A stretch of DNA of 64,000 bases, taken from positions 4,339,316 through 4,403,315 of the forward strand of contig CM053327.1 of assembly GCA_028583605.1 (NCBI GenBank), written 5' to 3'. Below the pieces are notes generated by a model, which saw nothing but the letters and a program-made list of their open reading frames with translations, was not told the DNA's origin and did no database searches. Shown in pieces: positions 14,165 through 63,366 of this stretch (its first letter is position 1; each line of letters opens with the position of its first letter). Origin of the DNA: Dastarcus helophoroides. Its lineage: Eukaryota > Arthropoda > Insecta > Coleoptera > Bothrideridae. Position numbers and translations under genes: made by a program.

Positions 14165-14603
14165 CCACATGTGATACAAACCCAGGACCCAGGAAGGATG
14201 ATTTTTTAAACAATTTGATGTCAAACTCAGTGATTTAACTTTCCTTAAAGATCGTGGTGGTTTAACTTACCCATCTGAAGATGTGATTACTGTATGTCAA
14301 GAAACAGAAACAGTTATAAAATTTTTTAATAATAATAATAGAAAATCTACACCTACATTAATGAAAACAAAAATTGTGTATCATGTGCTAAAAAAGTTTT
14401 TAAATCTAAACGTGTTTAAAGATTTGCGTGGACATCAATTTGATAATTTTCTCAATAATTGTAATCACATAATAGAGCTTCTGAGAGCTATTTGTGAAAA
14501 ATATATAGACACAAAAATACACCATGTCACCAAAATTTTTAATACTATGGAAATAACCAAAAGGCATATTTTAAATAAAGTGACAATTTTTAAAGAACAA
14601 TAA
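14165..14603 (+). pseudogene. P-type (THAP9-like) transposase C-terminal relic
   Basis: The frame ending at 14603 reads KDRGGLTYPSEDVITVC, then a helical Lys/Asn-rich stretch, LRGHQFDN, and NHIIELLRAICEKYIDTKIH. The KDRGGL-x-YPS motif, an H-x-F block and an I-x-L-(I/L)-RAI-x-EKY block are the pattern I know from the C-terminal part of insect P-element/THAP9-like transposases. The open frame extends 5' of the ATG at 14283 to about 14200, so the fragment is better described as a 3' exon piece. No catalytic core is visible between the THAP relic and here. Confidence 0.6.
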
Positions 14604-27700: not shown

Positions 27701-27910
27701 ACAAATACAAAATAATTTTTCATAACTCATAAACTACATTAACCATAAATATATACCGAAACCTCGCCCAAAAATATCAAACATTTGTCCAAGCATGAGG
27801 GAATCTTCAACATCTACTTTTTTTTTGGTGAAACAGACTAGTCCTTGGTTATGTTCTAAAATTTAATTACAAATCTTGTCCCCTGATAGCTTGGCTATCG
27901 AAACGAGTTA

Positions 27911-29289
27911 GGCCTAGCGCTGATATGCAATTTTCAGTTGCGCAACTGTTTGGTTTCAAGAGTGACTGCTATGGGTTTATATGGTAGCGCGCTCACATGC
28001 AACTAAAAGTTGCTGCAACTAAACAGTTTGTGTTTTGTCACAAACCAAACGATTGCGAAACTACCTGCAGCTGTTTTGTATCACATTGACTTAAATGCAC
28101 TGGCGCTGACTTGCAACTGAAACCAGGCAATTTGTAGCATATGATCATCGTAGAAGACAAAGGGTGTAATTTAATTTTTATTGTAGATTTTTAAATTTGT
28201 AACATTATTAACTTATATTAGGGTTTAATGTAATTTCTTGTGTAGAACTATTAAACTTGTTACTTGTTACATCAATTGGTTCCGGTAACAATTCTGAAGT
28301 ACTTGTTATGTATAAGTTTATAACCCTTGATTTTTGTTCCATTGCCACAATTCTCGTAATTCGAGGCGAGGGTAATTTTGATTACAAGAAAGAGAGTTAG
28401 GTTGTAAAAATTCTACAGTTAGGTGACTAGACATAATGAACCATATCGCGCCTTTTCCCTTTTAGTGCCTAGAAGTTAATCATTACCAATATTGGTGTTT
28501 TCTTTTTCTGTATCTGCAGGAGAAAAAAGGAACTTCAATATTTCTTAACGTGTACTTGTGATCACTACGGTATCCAATTTTTTGCATTAAACGCAGTACA
28601 TTACTTGTGTAGCCATTATTTTAGATTAGAGTAGTTGATGTAAACAGTTTAATTCGAATTACTTGACAAATCGATATGTTTTCTACAGAACCGCACGGTA
28701 AGAAATAATTTTTATACATATTTAATTTATAAGCTCTCAATCACATAAAATGAAGTGCTACACAATCGCTGTGCCGCGCCACATTAGTGGACAATTAATT
28801 TTTTAGTTACCCTATTAATTAAAAATTTTCCCAACTAAAAAAAGATTTTTTTGACTTTAAACTTCAATTATAAAATATAAAACTTGAACTTTTGTACTCA
28901 AATTATTATTCAATATTCATCCTATTACAGTTCGAAAAATGTTTTAGACCACATCACGAAAATAAACAATTAAAATCATTAATTATTTTCTGAATGACTG
29001 ACTACGCAAGCAAATCTTCGTGCAATTTATAAAATTGCCTTTTTATTAAATGCTGGCTTTAAGGTGATGTATCCAATATCGCTTCCTAGGCTTTCTTTTT
29101 TTCCTCTACTTAACTCGAAAGCACATACAGTAGCTAATTCGAAGACGTCCATATTGAAACTAAAAAGTTTCAGTTGCATGTGGGCTCGCCTGCCTGTGAC
29201 CAAACTGTTTGGTTGCGTAAGTGAGCGCGGTTTACTAGAAAACGAACCAAACAGTTGCGAAACTGAAAATTGCATGTCAGCGCTAGGCC
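27911..29289. mobile_element. Harbinger/PIF-like element with TTA duplication
   Basis: It starts GGCCTAGCGCTGATATGCAA and ends with the near-perfect inverse. TTA sits at 27908-27910 and 29290-29292. GGCC-type ends plus a 3-bp TTA TSD are typical of PIF/Harbinger and Tourist-like elements. The terminal inverted repeat runs ~45 bp (to CAACTGTTTGG) at high identity. Further inside, GCAACT/CAAACAGTTT words recur as subterminal repeats. No transposase was recognised; the 82- and 118-codon ORFs cover repeat sequence. Confidence 0.85.
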
Positions 29290-29292
29290 TTA

Positions 29293-29365
29293 GAGCAACC
29301 TTTGTTATGTTTTCTAATCTGGCTTGGTTTAAGAGGACAAATTTGTATTTTAATTTTATAATATC
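29293..29365 (+). repeat. Dispersed repeat, family D
   Basis: The stretch GAGCAACCTTTGTT then TTTTxTAATCT and a GG-x-CAAGATTTGT-like end recurs at 33112-33180 and, diverged, at 63068-63130. It also adjoins the hammerhead-like fold at 30.6 kb in inverted orientation. The Harbinger-like element inserted at its edge. Confidence 0.65.
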
Positions 29366-30590: not shown

Positions 30591-30603
30591 TGTAATAAGG
30601 TTG

Positions 30604-30644
30604 CTCTGACGCGTTTTGATAGCGAAGCTATCATCTTCAGAGAG
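30604..30644 (-). ncRNA. Hammerhead-like fold, probably inactive (copy 4)
   Basis: On the minus strand: CTCT (stem I), CTGAAGA, an extra T, a 6-bp stem GATAGC/GCTATC, AAAA where GAAA is canonical, CGCGTC, then AGAG (stem I partner). ACGCGT is palindromic, like the stem III of dimeric hammerheads. The extra base and the lost G of GAAA argue against cleavage. Confidence 0.4.
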
Positions 30645-30797
30645 ATACTCACACCTAATCCTAAAAATAGTCCTTGTATACTAAAAATATTCACTTCGTG
30701 CGGGATCTACCGCATCCGAACGCGCAAGTGTTAAGAGTAATAAATAGGAATTCTATGTTAAATTCATGTGAAAGTTTAGCCACCCATAAGGCTGAAG

Positions 30798-32872: not shown

Positions 32873-33111
32873 GGCTGAAGACAACCTTATGAATAGTTGC
32901 GCTTGGCCTTTAGGTCACTCATCTCTGTTAAAAATAGTTAAGGTTGATAGGTAAGGAATTGTGACACTGCGACGTTTATGATTAGATGCGCATGCGCACT
33001 CCGATGCGGTCGATCATGCACGAAGTGAATATTCTTAGAACATAAGGGTTAATTTTAGGATTAGGTGTTAGTATCTCTCTGAAAATGGTAGTTTGGATAT
33101 CAAAACGCGCT

Positions 33112-33180
33112 AGAGCAACCTTTGTTGTATTTTTTAATCTTGCTCGATTTCAGGGGCAAGATTTGTTTTTCAATTTTGAA
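33112..33180 (+). repeat. Dispersed repeat, family D
   Basis: CTAGAGCAACCTTTGTTGTA followed by TTTTTTAATCTTGCT and TTTCAGGGGCAAGATTTG matches 29293-29365. Confidence 0.65.
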
Positions 33181-35150
33181 AATAACCAAGGACCACTCCG
33201 TTCCACGAAAAAAATAAAAGATCAGGTCATATTTTTCATACTTTTTATTATAAACAACTATTTTAGGTGTAAAATAAAAATTGAAACACACCAAAGTAAC
33301 AAAAATGTTCAATAAATAACAAAATCCCTGACAAGTTCCTTAAGTTTTGAAGGTTTGCAACTTTGATTCTATAAATCGGTCACAGCCTACTGCTACAAAT
33401 AAGGTACTTATGGGAAAGTATAATTTTGACCTTGATGTTCAAAATAAACATAGACAACAATTTTTGACAAGAATAAGTTTTACCTAACCAGTAACAAAAT
33501 AATATGTCGAGTGTTCATTTAAAAGATAAAGTTGCCATATATTTCCAAAATTATTTTTTTTAGGGAACCACTGACTAAGCCACTAAATATTAGTTAAGGA
33601 TAGTTTTTACCTTTTTAAGGTATCAAGGCATAATGGAAATAAGGCGAGTGTCTTAGTAGCGAAAATTTTAAAAATTTCTCTGTGGTTTATAAACTGATAA
33701 CAGCTATGACATATTCGATGATGGAATATTTCATTTCATAAAAAGGTTGCAAAATAAAGGAAAACACTAACACTCTATTTTTATAAACTCGAATGCTATC
33801 GCAAAAAACTACTACAAATGGGTCGCCCTGTACACATTTATCATTGTTATGCAATTTAATGCCTTATGGAAAAGTTGTAGGTTGATGATTTAAGGTGTTA
33901 TTAATTAATCTTGATATTTAACAGATTATCTATGCAAAGCAAAACTAGAACAACATATATCGATTTAAACTGACCTGAACTACGTCATAAGCCATAAGCC
34001 AACAAGCTGGGAATACAAACAAGTTTTTATTTACCTTCAAAGAAATGTTTAGTGTTTAGAGGTAATTAACTTTATTGAATCTATGCCTAAGTCAAATTAT
34101 GGCCATAGCGGAAGGTAATACCGCAGTTATGAATACCGTAACCGGTAACCAGACAGATGTTTTCAATATATTATACCTAATGCATAATAATGACCCAGTT
34201 ACGTTGTAGACGTTTATACATATTATATATGTATCTTCTGGTTTTATAAATGAAATCAATAAAGCACGCCTCAGGTGTAGTTGGACCATACACGTATACA
34301 ATCTTAGCATTAATATATTTGATGACACGAAACATTTCAAAAATAGCTTGTCTAAATATCAAGTATGCTATATTTTGAAATCAGAAGATAAAGAACTTTT
34401 ATTTAAAGTAACCTTTTACAGGGCATTCTATTAAACAATTGAAACTAGGTAATTTCTTGAATTATCCAATATTAACATTGTTTATTCAAACGAAAATTCT
34501 TCTAGCTATAAAAATATAGCAAAGAACTGTAAAGCTTTCATTTGTATTAGTAGATATATCAGGCTGATTCTACGCCAAATGACGTCATGGTAGCTTCGGA
34601 TGGCATGTTGCTGTCGCAGGCTATTACAGTAATTCAGTTTTTTGCTAAAATCCTAGGCAGTTCGGTAAACACTGGCAAATTAAGAAATGATCAAATATTT
34701 TGCTCTTTGACTGGAAGAAATAAGTCGTTTACCCAAAAGACACTGTTCATCAGGTGAATAAGCAAACTAAAATTATTTTTTTGCATGACTGATACTAATT
34801 AGCCTTTTATTAAAACGACGTGTCTGTTTTGGGCTTTTAGAAAAAGATTTCAAACTCTGTTTATTGTCATAGTCAATAAGAAGTATTTAAAATGGCAAAA
34901 AATTATATCAAAAATTCCTCGAGAGCATTTTGGTAACATGCATGGTCAAACTGAGACAGGGGTGATATATTTTTCTTCAAAACTGTGTTTTCATCTAGCT
35001 AATAAAATATAGCGTTAATTGTAAATTTATCTCGAAACCCGCCTTTCTTGCAGTTATTTATTTATTCTAACATCTGTAAAACAAAATCACGGACTACTAG
35101 CACCATCAATCTGTCAAACTAAATTTCATATAAGTTTATTAATTCATAAA
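33181..35150. other. No gene seen
   Basis: AT-rich with short composition-driven ORFs. A repeat-terminus-like phrase (GGGTCGCCCTGTACAC) occurs near 33820. Nothing else was supported. Confidence 0.45.
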
Positions 35151-37604: not shown

Positions 37605-37945
37605 ATGACAAATGACCAATTAAATGTTTTGTAATTAAACAGTTGAACGTGCTTAAAATTGAAAATTTGTGCAACCGCAACCATAAGCTAGTTTCGGCTT
37701 TCCTTGGCCTCATCAGTATGGTACGGTGGTTGTATACACTTCCAATTTAAAGCCGTTAGTCAGTCGTATAAGTATCCAAGAGAGTAAATCCATATTGGGT
37801 AACTTGTAACTGACTTTTATCTGTTTATTACGCAAACATTTTCGCCACATGCTAATTGAAGCATTCTTCTCTGCTAAGATAATAAGCCTTGTATATAGGA
37901 ATATATACAAGTTTATTACGATGCAATTGTAATCAGCCAAACCAT
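37605..37945 (-). mobile_element. PLE-type repeat with a mutated hammerhead (copy A)
   Basis: Read on the minus strand the order is ATCGTAATAAACTTGTATAT, TACTCTCTTGGATACTTATA, CGGCTTTAAATTGGAAGTG, the hammerhead, then CAATTTTAAGCACG and ACATTTAATTGGTCATTTG. All of these blocks recur at 54869-55270 (copy B) and part at 49053-49170 (copy C). The 75-codon minus-strand ORF (37713-37940) translates the repeat and has no known domain. Confidence 0.7.
37668..37736 (-). ncRNA. Hammerhead ribozyme, mutated cleavage site
   Basis: The core CTGATGA is at 37710-37716 and GAAAC at 37691-37695 on the minus strand, with inner stem I CCATA/TATGG intact. Relative to copy B, stem II has one broken pair (GGCC/AGCC). 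The cleavage triplet region reads GCT instead of GTC, which breaks the A15.1-U16.1 pair, and outer stem I has changes. Probably inactive. Confidence 0.75.
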
Positions 37946-38245: not shown

Positions 38246-41200
38246 CAGTGGCGGCTGGTGTTAAAGAGCGCGAGAGCGCGCGCTCCTCGTGAAATGAGCG
38301 AACGATTCTTTTTTATTTAATGTAAAAGATTTGGATTTATCTCATTTTTAAGCACAAAGTAATGATATACTAATTAACTAATACTTATGAGTGACTTGAA
38401 ATAACGCAGGCAAACGTTTTATTTCATTATGTTATATATTATGAGGAAATTGAAATACGTTGGTGCGCGCAGAATTATGCACCTAGCGTGGTTGTCGTGT
38501 GATGGCTATCAACGGCCTCAACGGGATACGGAGAAATAAACTACAGAACACCACGTTAAAGCTAGCTCGGGGAACGCTGCACCCCGCTTATGCGCTATTG
38601 CCAAATGGTGAGTGCGAGACAGAGTTTGGAGTGTGCATTTACGGTTTATGATGCAAGATGCGTAGGTACCGGCTGATCTGATTGCGATTACTAATTCTGC
38701 CGTTTACAGGTCTAACTGCTAACAGTACCGCTATTCACAAAGAGATAGCAGTACCCATTCTGGGGTCTAATTATTAATTTGTTGATTTCGTTCTAATTAT
38801 AGCGAAAATAGTCGCTGAATGAACACGCACTACTAATGATGACATTGACAGTACGCGTAAAAATTTAAAGTGCATGTTTTTCAGTTTCAGTATTTTCCTT
38901 TGGATTTAAAATTTAATTTTGTGTTTAAAATGAACAGTACCAGTTTTTTATTTAAAAAAAAGATTTTAGTTAACTTTCACTGGAAGAAAAAGTAAAAATA
39001 AAAGAACTAGGTAGACCTTTGCCATGTTAAAACTAGAACAGAAGTGTGAAAAAAAAAATCTAAAAAAAGAGCGTTTACAAGGCATTTTTCTACGAATACC
39101 TATAAGAAGAATAACTGTATATGTGGTTGCGAGGTAACGAATTTGCTGTACTGTTTTCCGTGTGTGTTATTTTACAATCCACCGGGGTTTTCACCGTCAG
39201 ATTTAAGTTGGGCTAGAACCGGAATAAAAGATTTAACTATTTATTATTAAAAAACATGAGGGATCGCATAGTTATATTAATTTTTGCACAGCGGTCGCTT
39301 TACTTGGAAAAGTCAATATTATAGCTGAACTTAATTCTGCTCATAGGCAATGGAATATAATGAGAAAGTTAGAAAAAATGGCTATATTTTGAAATGAATT
39401 GTTTCCTGCATGAAATTTTGCAGCGCATTCGAATTAGCACTCAGAGGTCATGAAGAAAGTGAACAATCATAAAATCGTGAAATATTTAGGAAACTTGTCG
39501 ATTTTTCCGCTGAATTAGATGTAACCCTTCAAGAACATTTAAAAACTGCAACCGTTTTTCAGGGAACATCAAAAACCATACAAAATGAAATATTAGATTC
39601 TATACTGGCGACTTGCAGAGATGAAATCAGTAAACAAATTAGAGATTTAGAATTTCTGTCTGTTCAATGTGACGAAACTACAGACGTAACTAATTGGTGT
39701 CAGTTGGTATTGACATTTAGATATGTACGTGATAGTACAATTTGTGAGAACTTTTGGGGATTTAAAAGACTTAAAGACAAATCCGCCAAAGGCATAACAG
39801 AACGTATCCAAGAAGAACTGGACCCTTTAATTTTGCAAACACCTCACAAATTAATTGCACAAACTTACGATGGTGCAAATGTTACGAGTGGTTCTATAAA
39901 TGGAGTGCAGACTCAAATTAAATCAAAATATCCTTATGCCCATTATGTTCACTGTTATGTTTACCAGCTTAATCTTATAATGTAGAACATTCCAAAGTTC
40001 GTGTATTTTTTAATAACCTATCAGCGCTATTCCTGCTTTTTTTTCTAAATTCGTCTAATCCATGTGATGTCTTTAAAGAAATTGTCAAACAGAGATTGCC
40101 CAATGTGGCAGGAACTCGGTGGAATCATAATATTAGAACAGTAAATACTGTGTATGAAAACCGGGAAGAGCTAATGAAGTATTTGAAAAAATAGAAGAAA
40201 GATGTACAAATGGTGCAACTTTAAATGAAGCTTCCGGCTTCAGACGAGCTTTAGAAGACACAGAATTTGTTTTGGTTGACATTGTTTCACAAAATTCTTC
40301 CACACGTCGACGTTCTTTATAATCAAATTCAGTCGAGAAATAAGGACAGTATACAACTTCAAAAAGACATAGTTAATTTTGAAAACACCATTTCTACCAT
40401 TAGAAAAGAAACAGAAGACATTGAGAAATGCGTCAATACAAACTTTCCAAGTAGAAGAAGGAAAAGAAGTGATCATCATTTACAAAAAAGTGTGTATGCC
40501 AAAGAAATCTGCGACGTAATCATAACACAAATGAAGGAGTGATTTTCGTACCGTGGACACATTCTAGCTGCTAAACTATTTAAAAATCAACTATTTAAAA
40601 GATTTGCAGCTACTTTTCCAGTTAGTATTTTCTAAGCTGTGACTTCTGCTTATCCACACATATCTGCGCTTCGATTGAAAACAGAACTGACAGTTATTTA
40701 TTCAAGACCGGATTATGTTGATATTATTGGTGCCGTTAATTTATTGTCAGAAAATAATTTAACTGAAACATTTTTTGAAACACTAAAATTATTAAATATA
40801 ATTTTAACAACATCAATGACAACTCCAGAATCAGAACGCTGTTTTTCGACGCTTAAAAGAATTAAAAGTTTCTTACCCAATACTATGAACAATGATCGTT
40901 TAAATGCATTAGCGATGATATCTATCAACAAAAATATGGTGCAGGAGATGAAAAAGTAATAGAAAACTTTATTTCCTTAAAAGGTCGTAGAGCGGATTTT
41001 ATTTATAGAAAATATTTTTTTTGTGTTTTTGTATAGTCTAATTACAACTTTGTAATAAAATACATTTTATCTTCCAATGTAGTTTTCATTAAAAAATAAT
41101 ATAATTTTATTCCTATGAAAGCAAATAAATTTAATTAAGTACCGTAAAGCGGTAGCGAGGTGCAACCTTTTAAAAAGGCTCAGAAATGTGGATAATGTTT

Positions 41201-49052: not shown

Positions 49053-49170
49053 TAACGGTACGATCCTTGTAAACACTTTCAGCTTAAAGCCACTAGTCAG
49101 TAGTATAAGTAGTCAAAAGATTTCACTTCCATTGGATTACTTGGAACTGACTTTTAACTGTTTATTATAT
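49053..49170 (+). mobile_element. Fragment of the PLE-type repeat (copy C)
   Basis: Aligns with 37720-37830 (plus orientation): GGTACG, AAAGCCxxTAGTCAG, GTATAAGTA, ACTGACTTTTAxCTGTTTATTA. The hammerhead core itself is lost. An inverted echo of the last ~25 bp occurs at 49228-49255, so the 3' side is palindromic. Confidence 0.65.
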
Positions 49171-49284
49171 ATACAAGGTTTGTAATCTCAGCAAAAATAC
49201 CTAAATTAGGAGGTAGCAAAAATATTTGCGTAATAAATAGTTAAAAGTTAGTTATAGAATTTTATCGTCTTGTTAAGAAAAGTT

Positions 49285-54495: not shown

Positions 54496-54720
54496 TTGAA
54501 CAATCTGCAACATTTTATGGAAACGAGATCGAAATCTATCAAAATGAAACAACAATTGCAAGTGATATTAGCAATGCTGAAAGACAAAGAAGAAAGGGGT
54601 GAAGAACGAAGACAAGAAAATAAAGAACGAAGACCACAAGAAAAAGAACAAGATGAAGAATGGAGACGAAAGGAATTGCGTAGTCTGTTAGCAAATATAA
54701 CAGAAAAGATGGGAGAGTAG
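54496..54720 (+). pseudogene. gag-like coiled-coil N-terminus
   Basis: The 74-codon frame (MNNLQHFMETRSKSIKMKQQ, then a Glu/Arg/Lys repeat such as KEERGEERRQENKERR and RRKELRSLLANI) is a charged coiled coil, as often begins gag in insect gypsy-like elements. It lies ~170 bp after the putative primer-binding site. It stops at 54720; the next ~120 bp keep the Glu/Lys-rich style in another frame. The gag body is separated from it by the PLE-type repeat. Confidence 0.55.
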
Positions 54721-54868
54721 ACGTTGCAAAAGTGAGAGAAGAAATGTAAGAAGAGATTGGCGAAATCAAAGAAAAAATGGGAGAAGTAAAACAAGAATTC
54801 CACAACAAGCGTCTTCATTTGGACAACGCAACACAGAAAAAGGTCACATCGAAAATGCCATGAAGAAA

Positions 54869-55270
54869 TCACCCAATGGGGGTTTACTCTCTTGGATACT
54901 TATACCACTGACTAACGGCTTTAAGTTGGAAGTGTATACAACCACCGTACCATACTGATGAGGCCAAGGAAGGCCGAAACTAGTCTATGGCTGCGGTTGT
55001 ATATATTTTCAATTTTAAGCATGTTTAACTGTTTAACTACAAAACATTTAATTGGTCATTTGTCGAACTAGATGAAAGTAAAGTCACGCCGAGGACGTTT
55101 ATATCTATGGATGTTGCGATGCAATCTGTGATACAAGCCTTGCCTCATCTACGTGAACTTTGCAACTGCAATCTAGTTTTCATTAGATTCTAATGAAATT
55201 AGATTTCAATTGTATCGTAATAAACTTGTATGTATTCGCATATACAGGTCTTATTATCACAGCAATGAAG
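54869..55270 (+). mobile_element. PLE-type repeat with intact-looking hammerhead (copy B)
   Basis: Blocks shared with copy A are TTTACTCTCTTGGATACTTA, CTGACTAACGGCTTTAA, the ribozyme, TCAATTTTAAGCATG and AACATTTAATTGGTCATTTG (to about 55065). A further block shared with A (TATCGTAATAAACTTGTATG, about 55210) lies downstream of the ribozyme here but upstream of it in copy A. This is the order expected if B spans the junction between two tandem units. The repeat interrupts a gag-like retrotransposon relic. Confidence 0.7.
54935..55003 (+). ncRNA. Hammerhead ribozyme, type I, complete core
   Basis: Outer stem I is TATACAACC (54935-54943) with GGTTGTATA (54995-55003). The internal loop is ACCGTA / CTGC. 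Inner stem I is CCATA (54950-54954) with TATGG (54986-54990). The core is CTGATGA (54955-54961). Stem II is GGCC (54962-54965) with GGCC (54972-54975) around AAGGAA, and GAAA is at 54976-54979. Stem III is only A-C/G-U (ACTAGT, palindromic), and the predicted cleavage follows C54985 (GTC). All conserved core bases are present. The short palindromic stem III is the feature reported for hammerheads of Penelope-like elements, which may act as dimers. Function is inferred, not shown. Confidence 0.88.
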
Positions 55271-55424
55271 AAGTTGTTAAATGGACAATTCACACAACAT
55301 AAATCGGAAAGTGTACCTGCTGTATCTTCTCACAAAGTGAAATCTCCGACCTATGATGGACAAACATCCTTCGAGACCTGGCGAAAACATGGGGTTTTAA
55401 TTATCAAACTGGAAACACGTAACA
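55271..55424 (+). pseudogene. gag fragment followed by an LTR-end echo
   Basis: The 105-codon frame (55193-55510) includes HKVKSPTYDGQTSFETWRKH (about 55330-55390). The pattern KxPTYDGxTSxxxW is a recognisable gag block of gypsy-like elements. Directly after it, TTTTAATTATCAAACTGG and CACGTAACA (to 55424) match the 3' end of the LTR at 54297-54326, so the frame reads from gag into a truncated 3' LTR. The element is therefore a short internally deleted relic. Confidence 0.6.
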
Positions 55425-55429
55425 ATACA

Positions 55430-57130
55430 ATAGTCGTAGATTTAGCATTTTTCAAAAACAATCGAATACAATTCAATAAAAATATATTCGATAAAATAGA
55501 ACGGATTTAATATGACGGCACCTTAAAAATGAACTTCCATAAATATTAAATATCTTATATCATGTGCTGATCATTTTTTATCTCTGCTAACTGCAGCATT
55601 TGGCGCCCATATACAGATATATTTTTTAGTTGGGAGGTTACCATATGTTGGGTACCACTCATTATAGAGACAACGTTATTTTTTTTTAATTTGCCCCCCA
55701 TTTTCAGTTATACCAGAAGTAATAATCAACTTTCTTATTTTAAATATTATTTGGATTTTACGTAAAAAAATAAGGCGAGTTTAGGTATACATGTTTATTT
55801 TTATCTTTGATGGTTTTAAAAATATTTCAATGTTTCGGAAAAAAATGACTTAAAAGGGGGTAAGTTTGACTCATTATATCTATGACCACTATACTTTCTC
55901 TTTGGGGAACAATTAAGAAGCACGTTTTTGGTATGACTTATGTATGAAAAGAATATTGCTAGGAACGATCGGATGTGCTTGAAATTGTTACTCGACCAGA
56001 AATTTTAAAACATGCCTTTAAATATATTGAAACCGAAAGCCGTCATTTCGAATACTGCTGCAAAATTTGGAAAATTATGCAAAGTAGCTTTTTCTCTCTT
56101 TTATCTGAGGAATTTAAAAATTATTAGAAAATATAAACTCCCCTTAAAAAACTATTTAAATAAAATAAAACAATAAAGATGATGAAATTTCCTTCACTCT
56201 GTATAATAAATGTGAAAACTGATTATAATATTGTAGTCTCCATATTAGGACATTGTATGTCTTTAACTAAATTTTTTTTCCGCTAATCACACAAAGATAC
56301 AAAGAGTCAAACTAACCCTCTTTTCTGTCATTTTTTGTTTCGAAAACTTGAAATATTTTCAAAACTATTAAAAATAGCAATACATTTTGTTTAAACTTAC
56401 CTTATTTTTGTACGTTTCTAACAAAAAATAAAATTTGGAGGTTGCCATTTAAAATAAGAAAGTTGGTCTATATAACCCATATAACCGAAAATGAGAGAAA
56501 GTTGAAAATATTTTTAAAAAAAAGTTTATTCTCGAAAGACCCATCTACAGAATTAGCTGGTCTTCATAAAAAGTGGTTCTCCCTATAGATACCCCTACCT
56601 CTCAACCAAAGGAAAACCTCCCTGTAGAAATTCTAGACCTTATCAGAAATCTAACTCAATGAGGGTTTAGATGATGAGAATGAGTTCAGTGGAGTCTCTT
56701 TAGAATTCTTTCAAAATTATTTTCGACAAATAATTTTAGGAAACATCAACTATATTTCTTAGTTTTAAAAATTAAAATCCTACTTCGGATTAGAAGGGTT
56801 TGAATCCTAGTTTTAAATTTAAATCGAAAGTATTTCTCAAAGTTATAATAAGCGGGACTTCATAAAATTTTGGAGCATTGTGTGTCCCAATTTTGTAGTA
56901 GTTTGGTAACTATCAAGGATTATACTCATTCAAACTGTAGCTGCAGAAAACTAAACTGCTGTTCTTTGTTTTCGAAGTTATACAATTATATTACCGCGAA
57001 AATATATGTACAGAGTAAGCCCACAAACTTATAAGTTAATTTGGCTACTCGTACCAAAGAAACAAAATTATATTCGCTTAACAAATTGGCTTCTCACTCC
57101 AGGGCAAAGACAGTAAGAAATATAGCATCG
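55430..57130. other. No gene seen
   Basis: AT-rich. No coding motif or paired termini were recognised. Confidence 0.45.
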
Positions 57131-61053: not shown

Positions 61054-61918
61054 CTACTGAATAATTTTAATAGCAATAAAATCTCTATGCCTTTTTACAA
61101 TAGCTTGCGGTTCCCAATTTTCTTTTGCACTCACAGTTTTAATTTTTATATAAGTATCTATCTGTACAGATTTTAGAGTGTCCAGAAATACATGAATATT
61201 TGGATAAGGTGAGCAAAATGGTTGGTTAAATTTGGAATGGAAGGACTCACATGCATTTGCAGTCCTACCAAGAGATGCACTGCTTGCGTCCCAAAAGGAT
61301 GGAGGAAGTAATGTACCTTCCGTTACGTAGCTGTCCGTCAAATAGTCCGAAAATTGAAAAATTTGTGTGTTGCTGGGAATGTCTGACATTAAATCGCAAA
61401 CGAAGGCATCACTCACTTCACTTGGGTCCAAGAACGTCAGTCCAAATACGTGTCGTAACCATTTACCCTCTACAGACTTTTCGTCCTTATAGTGAGTAGC
61501 AAGTCCCAGTTGCTGAATTTTTCGCCACCAAGCCTGCGCCTGATGAAATCTACAGCCTCACCATAGGAAAATTTTTCATCACACTTATGTCTATCGCCTT
61601 TTCCAAATCTACGACAATGGTTTCGGGGTTCCACAATAAATTTTGTTCCTGGCATTTCCTTTTCAGCACATCAAACATCACGCTATATGCAGATTCGTGT
61701 TTGTTTTTCAGTAGGCAAAATGCAGTGGGGGCATAGATATCACTGCTACGCACATGAATTTTGAATAATTGCATAAAATACTTTGTGCAATAATCGAAAG
61801 TTCCGTCAACGTACATTTTTTTGCTTTCGCATAAGAACTTCAAATTTGTATCTGCGCCTAATAATCCAGTTTCTAATGGTCCCTTATGACCATTTAATGA
61901 AGGGCGCAGTTCAGGCAA
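61054..61918 (-). pseudogene. MULE-type transposase relic
   Basis: The minus strand reads ESKKMYVDGTFDYCTKYFMQ, then YAPTAFCLLKNKHESAYSVM, TIVVDLEKAI and NFPMV, then (after a 1-base frame change near 61560) GCRFHQAQAWWRKIQQLGL. It continues through KWLRHVFGLTFLDPSEV, RTANACESFHSKFN and a Lys-rich C-terminus ending at 61054. DGTF..C, the late D-x-E-K-A and C-x-F-H-x-x-Q are the MULE transposase-domain hallmarks. The usual N-terminal zinc finger (FLYWCH or similar) is absent. No terminal inverted repeats were identified. The frameshift and missing N-terminus suggest a dead copy. Confidence 0.85.
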
Positions 61919-61929
61919 GGGATGAACTT

Positions 61930-62815
61930 TTTCTTTAAAATCACAGTAATGACATTTTAGGACGGAGTGCAGTTAATGATTCTTCGTTTCGTACTCTTAT
62001 TACCTTTTACATTAAATAATTAATTATTCTTAATTAAAGGTATTCTGGCTAGGATTTAATTAGGCAGCCTATGCGCGATTTGTGGGTTTGTGTGTTATCA
62101 TTTATTAAATATTTAAATATACAGCTTTTTCAGATAACAGATGTGGTAAGGTTGACTTTAGTCGGAATTCTAACTATCAAACAAGATTAAAATTATGCTA
62201 AAAGATGTTCAAATTATTTTCCTTTATTTTGCAAACTGGCTTAAATTTCGGACGTATCTTGTTTACATGCGATACTTTCAGGCATGCTGGGCATGATGTT
62301 AGGACTGTCCAACTTACATAATTTATTATCACTCCTATTCATGAACTTTGGATATTGCGATGAATTTCAAGCTCGTAGGGGTCGTATTTAATGCTAATCA
62401 CCCTTTATGTTCGGGATAGTGAGAAATTAGAACAACGTTAACAATGAACCGGCAATGTAAGCAATGACCGTTCATATTGGCCATTGTAAGAAAACATATT
62501 GTTTGCAAGCAGTCACGCAGTCCGTTTTCAGAGTTTAGGCTTGCAATTTGAATTTATTCTTTTTTCTTAAATTTCGCTTACAACTCAAAATTTAGGTTTT
62601 TTTTAGAAATTTAGGCCTAGTTATCAAATGTTTTACCTTCATTATAATATACTGATTTTTTTTCTCTAAATGTCAAATTTAAACCAAAAATGTTGAATTT
62701 TTCTATCCAAATTTTGTGTTAAAACCTTATTTTTTTATAATTTTAAAATCTTTTTGTAAATTTGGACTTTTACTGAAACGCATATTTAAAATTTAAATTG
62801 AATATTTTAGAGTGT
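61930..62815. other. No gene; minisatellite-like stretch at 62560-62770
   Basis: AT-rich. Around 62560-62770, AAATTTxGxxTTTTTT-like phrases recall the 0.7-2.3 kb array but are too diverged to call a tandem array. Confidence 0.4.
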
Positions 62816-63067: not shown

Positions 63068-63130
63068 GTAACGCTTGTTGTGTTTTTTAATCTTTCTTGG
63101 TTTCAGGGAACAAGTTGTGTATTTCAATTT
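63068..63130 (+). repeat. Dispersed repeat, family D (diverged)
   Basis: ACGCTTGTTGTGTTTTTTAA followed by TCTTTCTTGGTTTCAGGGAA and CAAG matches 33116-33165. The preceding ~50 bp (63015-63068) are unusually GC-rich. Confidence 0.55.
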
Positions 63131-63366
63131 AAACGATGATAAAAATTTAAAAAAAATAATAAAAAACTACAGGATTTAAGTCAGTCTGTTTTTTACTTCG
63201 TATTTACTCCGTCCAAGATATCAATGTGGAGTAATCGCTGGGCAGTGTGACTAGTTCAAAAATATTTTCCACAATGAGCTCCTATCCCTGACTTCCACGT
63301 TGGACAATGTTTACATTGACCGGGCACTGCAGACAATGACTGATTTTCCACTGGGTCTGTAACATA

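What the first reader, a model, noticed from the sequence alone, without database searches (positions are those of the whole stretch)
54935..55003. Complete type I hammerhead ribozyme in a Penelope-like repeat
All conserved positions are present: CTGATGA, stem II GGCC/GGCC, GAAA, a GUC cleavage site and a two-part stem I (5 bp inner, 9 bp outer, separated by an internal loop). Stem III is a palindromic ACTAGT giving only two pairs within one molecule but six between two. That matches the minimal, possibly dimeric hammerheads reported for Penelope-like elements.
Basis: partly seen in the sequence, partly recalled or inferred. Interest (0 to 1): 0.9.

Follow-up and report, generated by a model that had tools for sequence, protein, structure and literature searches.

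The report
Self-cleaving RNA in a jumping repeat
The stretch encodes an intact hammerhead self-cutting RNA inside a small, non-coding jumping element present in well over a thousand copies in this animal's genome, and the way the sampled copies are inserted suggests they borrow the machinery of Penelope-type retrotransposons.

Summary
Window 54935-55003 carries every conserved hammerhead position, with cleavage predicted after C54985. It is not chance: its 31-nt core occurs 1,933 times in this genome (up to 2 mismatches) against 0 for the reversed control. Rfam's cut-off is not reached, but the same models miss sibling copies too. The host repeat is not a Penelope-like element (PLE) proper. 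It is a 466-nt non-coding unit, found single or as head-to-tail tandems, that is, an animal retrozyme. The window copy is a 5'-truncated monomer (54868-55264) flanked by an 8-bp target duplication.

The informative part is how copies are inserted. In 23 of 55 chained insertions two arms face head-to-head. Where both outer ends fall in the two recurrent classes (17 of 23), one lies at unit position ~266 and the other at ~466, never two alike. Three of three PLE insertions looked at in the same genome show the same rule with a ~35-nt 'tail'. I conclude that this is a new retrozyme family, probably moved by a PLE enzyme. Catalysis, circular RNA and the helper enzyme are untested.

The parts
54868..55264 (+). 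Retrozyme copy A: 5'-truncated monomer of the 466-nt family-R unit (unit positions ~67-466)
   Evidence: BLAST to genome copies; 93% identical to the reference unit over 54866-55264
54935..55003 (+). Type I hammerhead ribozyme; cleavage predicted after 54985
54979..54984 (+). Palindromic stem III ACTAGT: tetraloop hairpin in a monomer, 6-bp duplex between two copies
   Evidence: duplex -4.8 kcal/mol alone, -6.2 with one flanking base on each side
55059..55076 (+). Site A: recurrent 3'-type insertion end (unit ~258-277, mode 265-266), about 80 nt after the cleavage site
   Evidence: 39 of 76 arms in the sampled copies end here; position in this copy inferred by alignment, the copy itself runs past it
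55255..55264 (+). Site B: the other recurrent 3'-type end (unit ~457-466); the actual 3' end of this copy
   Evidence: 29 of 76 arms
55068..55262 (+). Predicted ~200-nt domain closed by a 12-bp helix (unit 270-281 with 451-464) whose base brings sites A and B together; one pair of it is a mismatch in this copy
   Evidence: folded on the L044 unit; hypothesis only: 35 of 466 windows of this length close like that, no covariation
54860..54867 (+). Left target-site duplication ATGAAGAA
55265..55272 (+). Right target-site duplication ATGAAGAA
37606..37934 (-). Second copy (B) of the same family, unit 404-466 then 1-266, ending at site A; its cleavage triplet is mutated (GTC to GCT), so its ribozyme is probably dead
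49057..49254 (.). Old fragment of the family (81-83% identical), two short arms in opposite orientation

Best explanation
Window 54868-55264 is a copy of an animal retrozyme, a non-autonomous, non-coding retroelement whose RNA cuts itself with a type I hammerhead. Likely cycle: tandem copies are transcribed as multimers; neighbouring hammerheads pair through their palindromic stem III and cleave after each GUC; the 466-nt monomers are probably ligated into circles; a PLE-type reverse transcriptase/GIY-YIG endonuclease then inserts the RNA into a staggered break of roughly 8-12 bp. The two broken DNA strands are primed on the RNA at two different fixed internal sites, A (about 80 nt after the cut) and B (about 200 nt further on). 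The two cDNA arms meet head-to-head, sometimes by microhomology, or one arm alone joins the target. Shown by sequence: ribozyme anatomy, copy number, tandem unit, target duplications, the two end sites and the one-of-each rule in the sampled copies. Inferred: catalysis, dimer action, circles, and the identity of the helper PLE.
For: Copy number 1,933 against 0 control. 29 of 76 arms exceed one unit, up to 1,922 nt, so templates were multimers or circles. Target duplications of 6 bp or more at 22 of 55 chains against 1.3% after re-pairing flanks. Two-arm insertions: 17 of 23 have both ends in the classes, all 17 A+B, 0 A+A, 0 B+B. PLE-1 (L054, L055) and PLE-2 (L076) insertions, 3 of 3 looked at, also have one short and one tailed end, about 33-36 nt apart (read by eye). 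Published PLE hallmarks agree: inverted pLTRs, 8-10 bp duplication, tail at one of the inverted pLTRs (PMC3846280, passages); internal RT start 111-118 nt into the ORF with the ribozyme cut at 26, i.e. 85-92 nt after the cut (PMC11167929), against about 80 nt here. A PLE with an 814-aa frame and RVT_1 and GIY-YIG domains is present. Units of one insertion differ by 2.3% against 4.4% between insertions, 0 of 2000 permutations as low. Unit RNA folds as a circle at -155.5 kcal/mol, z -10.9. Ribozyme core intact in 48 of 57 spanning segments of the BLAST-chosen loci.
Against: No Rfam hit at gathering score. In isolation the active fold is only about 0.8% of the predicted ensemble (stem III and tertiary contacts not modelled). 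The hammerhead is no better conserved than the rest of the unit (2.3% against 1.7-3.3%), and its stems show no convincing compensatory double changes. Intact-core counts are inflated by how loci were chosen. Arm ends are not enriched at the cleavage site (1 of 76 within 5 nt; 1.8 expected), so cleaved linear RNA leaves no trace. Opposite arms are closer than the median between-insertion distance in only 11 of 15 insertions. No sequence shared between the unit and PLE-1 or PLE-2 was found in the loci held (one 13-nt match apart), so the helper is unidentified. Six of 23 two-arm insertions are not clean A+B: L025, L045, L048 and window 49057 have another end; L056 is cut by a second element; L041 has site A after a short deletion. 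No RNA data.
Confidence: 0.8

Rival explanations
1. The unit is the pseudo-LTR of an autonomous PLE of this genome that I did not find, so the copies are solo pLTRs rather than retrozymes.
For: PLE-type ends and inverted arms; hammerheads do sit in the pLTR of PLE-2 here.
Against: In the 50 sources with family-R chains (49 loci and the window), PLE-1 and PLE-2 proteins match near a chain only in L051, 451 nt away, where the unit is a separate insertion with its own target duplication; exact 466-nt head-to-tail tandems are what short circles or multimers give. A PLE unlike PLE-1 and PLE-2 would be missed by this test.
Confidence: 0.1
2. Retrozyme moved by LINE-type machinery with ordinary twin priming.
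For: Head-to-head arms and junction overlaps (5 nt or more at 9 of 23 junctions, BLAST boundaries) resemble L1 twin priming (recalled).
Against: In L1 the second priming point is variable and the 3' end has poly(A) (recalled); here both ends recur and the flanks printed show no regular poly(A). PLEs of the same genome share the rule.
Confidence: 0.08
3. Plain satellite DNA spread by unequal crossing-over; the hammerhead is a relic.
For: Head-to-tail repeats; conservation not concentrated on the ribozyme.
Against: The sampled loci are dispersed one- to few-unit insertions, 22 of 55 with target duplications; the window copy has an open empty site.
Confidence: 0.03
4. The element moves as proposed but the ribozyme is not needed: uncleaved multimers are the template.
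For: Arms up to four units long, no enrichment of ends at the cleavage site; in the lizard PLE ribozyme-dead RNA was still inserted in vitro (PMC11167929).
Against: Core retained in 48 of 57 BLAST-chosen segments, but these are mostly young copies, so retention is weak evidence.
Confidence: 0.25

Closest known systems
Animal non-LTR retrozymes with type I hammerheads (mussel, coral, axolotl; PMC7229834, text parts 1-4 of 6 read)
   Same: Non-coding, AT-rich, tandem units of a few hundred bp, thousands of copies, type I hammerhead; stem III of one pair under a palindromic tetraloop as in axolotl/newt, which work better as dimers.
   Different: Unit of 466 nt is longer than the 170-400 nt RNAs (150-450 bp repeats) reported; the A/B insertion footprint is not described in the parts read.
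Penelope-like elements with hammerheads and one-sided tails (PMC3846280 passages; PMC11167929 parts 1-3 of 4)
   Same: Head-to-head arms, short target duplications, tail at one arm only, RT start about 80-90 nt after the ribozyme cut.
   Different: No coding sequence; 'tail' of about 200 nt instead of about 30-40; stem I extended with an internal loop.
pDo500 satellite of Dolichopoda cave crickets (PMC2837043, passages)
   Same: About 500-bp insect repeat with a hammerhead; single and double-hammerhead action proposed.
   Different: Described as satellite DNA; sequences not compared here.

Membership tests
Type I hammerhead ribozyme | Conserved core CUGANGA...GAAA...UH with three helices, stem I open | tested here: met
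   stem III only a tetraloop hairpin in the monomer
Type I hammerhead ribozyme | Covariance match above the curated cut-off | tested here: not met
   23.7 against 52 bits; the cut-off also misses the sister copies scanned, so I do not take it as defining
Type I hammerhead ribozyme | Self-cleavage activity | not testable with these tools
   none
Animal retrozyme | Short non-coding AT-rich unit with type I hammerhead, in dimers or multimers and many copies | tested here: met
   longest stop-free stretch in the doubled unit 89 codons (+) and 47 (-)
Animal retrozyme | No LTR/PBS/PPT; target duplication longer than 4 bp | tested here: inconclusive
   duplications met; absence of LTR features only judged by reading the unit
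Animal retrozyme | Abundant circular and linear monomer RNA | not testable with these tools
   no RNA data
Penelope-like element (autonomous) | RT plus GIY-YIG frame within the element | tested here: not met
   no match of PLE-1 or PLE-2 proteins in or next to the chains of 50 sources, L051 apart where it is a separate PLE-2 copy
Penelope-like element (integration mode) | Head-to-head arms, short duplication, tail on one arm | tested here: met

The most novel reading that the evidence does not exclude
One RNA, probably a circle, is read from two fixed entry sites at once, one per broken DNA strand. The sites are 200 nt apart in sequence but lie side by side at the base of a 12-bp helix, so that PLE 'tails' and retrozyme ends are the same structural device and the retrozyme is a PLE parasite that mimics the PLE entry structure without sharing its sequence.
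Probability: 0.3. Interest if true: 0.7.

Novelty: new member of a known kind. Interest (0 to 1): 0.45.

Why it matters
Who moves animal retrozymes is open: the 2020 paper names PLEs as a strong candidate only. The two-end, one-of-each footprint found here is a genomic signature that ties a retrozyme to the PLE way of insertion. It can be looked for in other genomes and gives defined RNA positions to test with the purified PLE protein system described in 2024 (PMC11167929).

Tried and rejected
Rejected: the unit as part of the PLE-2 copy in L051. It interrupts that copy's pLTR with a target duplication, so it is nested. Rejected: a template-switch chimaera between family R and PLE-2 in L071; its flanks share a 7-bp duplication, so it is nested too. 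L075, where a family-P piece abuts the unit, stays unclear. Rejected: recurrent ends near unit 432-444; most are other elements inserted at a TATA palindrome. Led nowhere: a helper PLE sharing sequence with the unit; enrichment of arm ends at the cleavage site; covariation. The A-B helix is weak evidence: 35 of 466 windows of that length close like that, 7 of them being the A-B one itself, and forcing it costs 3.7 kcal/mol. Not done: naming the organism, or searching the unit in named genomes. Literature: searches (listings) and the papers named; no description of this footprint in retrozymes was seen there. The 2014 and 2017 PLE-hammerhead papers are not held.

Sampling: of 1,933 core copies I read 55 chains in 50 sources, the window's three included; L021, L048 and L049 give two chains each, and in L049 these are one copy split by another element. 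28 loci come from BLAST hits and L051 from a GIY-YIG hit, which favours long copies; 20 loci (L056-L075) follow the order of the listing at the start of contig C1, which shows exact core matches first. Intact-core counts are therefore biased: 75 of 83 overall; by set 48 of 57, 28 of 29 and 1 of 2 in the window (slightly looser inclusion). In the 20 listed loci: two-arm 7 (6 A+B, 1 unresolved), one-arm 13 (12 at A, 1 unresolved). Target-duplication lengths allow up to 4 nt of element and are upper bounds.

Full report
OBSERVATION. The window lies in a 539-Mb genome held without a name. Rfam gives nothing at its gathering scores over the window. In the 251-nt stretch the best match is Hammerhead_HH9 with 23.7 bits, E 7.5e-4, cut-off 52. 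That failure is not informative: of five further loci scanned, the 3 family-R hammerheads of L072 and L074 scored 20.9-21.9 bits, and no hammerhead model was listed for the PLE locus L076 or the array L077. Copy number is the better test. The 31-nt core with up to 2 mismatches occurs 968 + 965 times in the genome and never in the reversed control. The wider pattern for short-stem-III hammerheads gives 22,666 hits against 6.

THE ELEMENT. The ribozyme sits in a repeat unit of 466 nt (reference: one unit of L044) that occurs alone, truncated, or as exact head-to-tail tandems. Unit landmarks: hammerhead about 136-204, cleavage after 186, AATAAA at 43 and 421, a perfect hairpin at about 427-450. 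The longest stop-free stretch in the doubled unit is 89 codons on the + and 47 on the - strand. The window copy A covers unit ~67-466 and is flanked by ATGAAGAA on both sides (54860-54867, 55265-55272). With the two flanks put together one frame is open across the site, so this is a clean insertion. A second copy at 37606-37934 (-) has a damaged cleavage triplet; a third, 49057-49254, is old.

INSERTION FOOTPRINT. I mapped the unit onto 50 sources and chained the pieces: 55 chains, 23 with two arms facing head-to-head and 32 with one arm. Outer 3'-type ends fall into two classes: A, unit 258-277 with a mode at 265-266, and B, unit 457-466. Of the 23 two-arm insertions, 17 have both ends in a class, and all 17 are one A and one B; none is A+A or B+B. 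The other six: L041 (B, and site A after a short deletion), L056 (A, other arm interrupted by another element), L025 and L045 (B with an end at unit 34 or 49), L048 (266 and 293), and the old window fragment. One-arm chains: 20 at A, 9 at B, 3 elsewhere. Target duplications of at least 6 bp are found at 22 of 55 against 1.3% when flanks are re-paired at random. Overlaps of 5 nt or more occur at 9 of 23 head-to-head junctions (BLAST boundaries, so approximate).

TEMPLATE. 29 of 76 arms are longer than one unit, the longest 1,922 nt, so the template was a multimer or a circle. Inner arm ends are not enriched at the cleavage site. Units within one insertion are closer to each other (2.3%) than to those of other insertions (4.4%; 0 of 2000 permutations as low), and opposite arms are as close as units of the same arm (2.31 and 2.33%). 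Insertion by insertion this is weaker: opposite arms are closer than the median between-insertion distance in 11 of 15. The pattern fits both arms copying one RNA. As a circle the unit folds at -155.5 kcal/mol, z -10.9 against 60 shuffles. Cost of forcing the active ribozyme in the circle: 2.7 kcal/mol.

LINK TO PENELOPE-LIKE ELEMENTS. The genome holds at least two PLE families. PLE-1 has an 814-aa frame with RVT_1 and GIY-YIG (L053) and no hammerhead by my pattern in L053 and L055. PLE-2 carries a GIY-YIG frame followed by a minimal hammerhead with palindrome ACGCGT (L076, L079). Three head-to-head PLE insertions were looked at (L054, L055, L076); each has one short end and one end longer by about 36 (PLE-1) or 33 nt (PLE-2) (read by eye). 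This is the published PLE 'tail', optionally present at one of the inverted pLTRs (PMC3846280, passages). In the anole PLE the RT starts 111-118 nt into the frame and the ribozyme cuts at 26, i.e. 85-92 nt after the cut; there, in vitro, both strands used the same start sites, unlike the strict one-of-each seen here. Site A lies about 80 nt after the cut in family R, and the PLE-2 short end about 63 nt after it. No sequence shared between the family-R unit and PLE-1 or PLE-2 was found in the loci held. The footprint, not the sequence, makes the link, and which PLE serves is unknown.

A STRUCTURAL IDEA. Sites A and B are 200 nt apart. In the isolated fold, that segment is closed by a 12-bp helix (270-281 with 451-464) whose base carries both sites. 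This could explain a 200-nt tail acting like a 35-nt one. The evidence is thin: 35 of 466 windows of that length close like that (7 of them this one), the circle prefers another fold by 3.7 kcal/mol, and the pairs hardly vary.

RIBOZYME. Alone, the active fold is about 0.8% of the predicted ensemble; in the best fold ACUG at the core pairs with UAGU of the palindrome. A second copy would compete for that palindrome. This and the amphibian precedent (PMC7229834) favour action as a dimer within tandem transcripts. The solitary window copy would then be a poor cleaver. Conservation does not single out the ribozyme, and no convincing compensatory double changes are seen in its stems; the copies are too young, and chosen with too much bias (see Tried and rejected), to decide.

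VERDICT. A real hammerhead in a real mobile repeat. The kind is known (animal retrozyme). The family, its 466-nt unit and the two-site footprint were not met in the searches. Two further hammerhead families (P, with a 170-nt tandem related to PLE-2, L077; Q, roughly 370-nt unit with a GTA site, L078) share the genome.

Noticed in passing
whole genome; L076, L077, L079: Hammerhead family P (CTGAAGAT...GAAACGCGTT), the most frequent in the places listed: in the pLTR of a GIY-YIG PLE and also as a 170-bp tandem that combines the element's end in direct and inverted orientation.
   Followed up: partly
L078:336-1488: Third hammerhead family Q with a GUA cleavage triplet in a tandem of roughly 370-nt units; HH9 35.3 bits, still under the Rfam cut-off.
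   Followed up: no
window 27823-27910, 29287-29360, 30597-30794, 32873-33211, 63070-63154: Decayed pieces related to PLE-2 / family P.
   Followed up: no
L053, L054, L055: Young PLE family with long open frames (RVT_1 + GIY-YIG), near-perfect head-to-head copies (99.3-100% in self-alignments) and a ~36-nt one-sided tail ending just before the likely start codon.
   Followed up: partly
L049:4600-5205, L056:1-416, L058, L059, L067: At least two other elements inserted at the TATA palindrome of the unit's hairpin (unit ~432-444), with CAG/CTG ends like TA-targeting DNA transposons (recalled, not tested).
   Followed up: partly
L051 and L071: Family-R units nested inside PLE-2/family-P copies with target duplications.
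   Followed up: partly
window 61550-61972 (-), 39473-39985 (+), 14202-14603 (+): DNA-transposon remnants: MULE transposase domain, weak DUF4371 match (below its cut-off), THAP9 C-terminal domain.
   Followed up: no
L051:2298-2699: Amiloride-sensitive sodium channel exon (PF00858, E 2.3e-23); by eye it resembles insect members, so the host may be an arthropod, which I did not establish.
   Followed up: no
window 54500-54860 and 55265-55450: The window copy interrupts a frame that looks gag-like by eye; a 33-bp repeat (54295 and 55393) flanks the region.
   Followed up: partly
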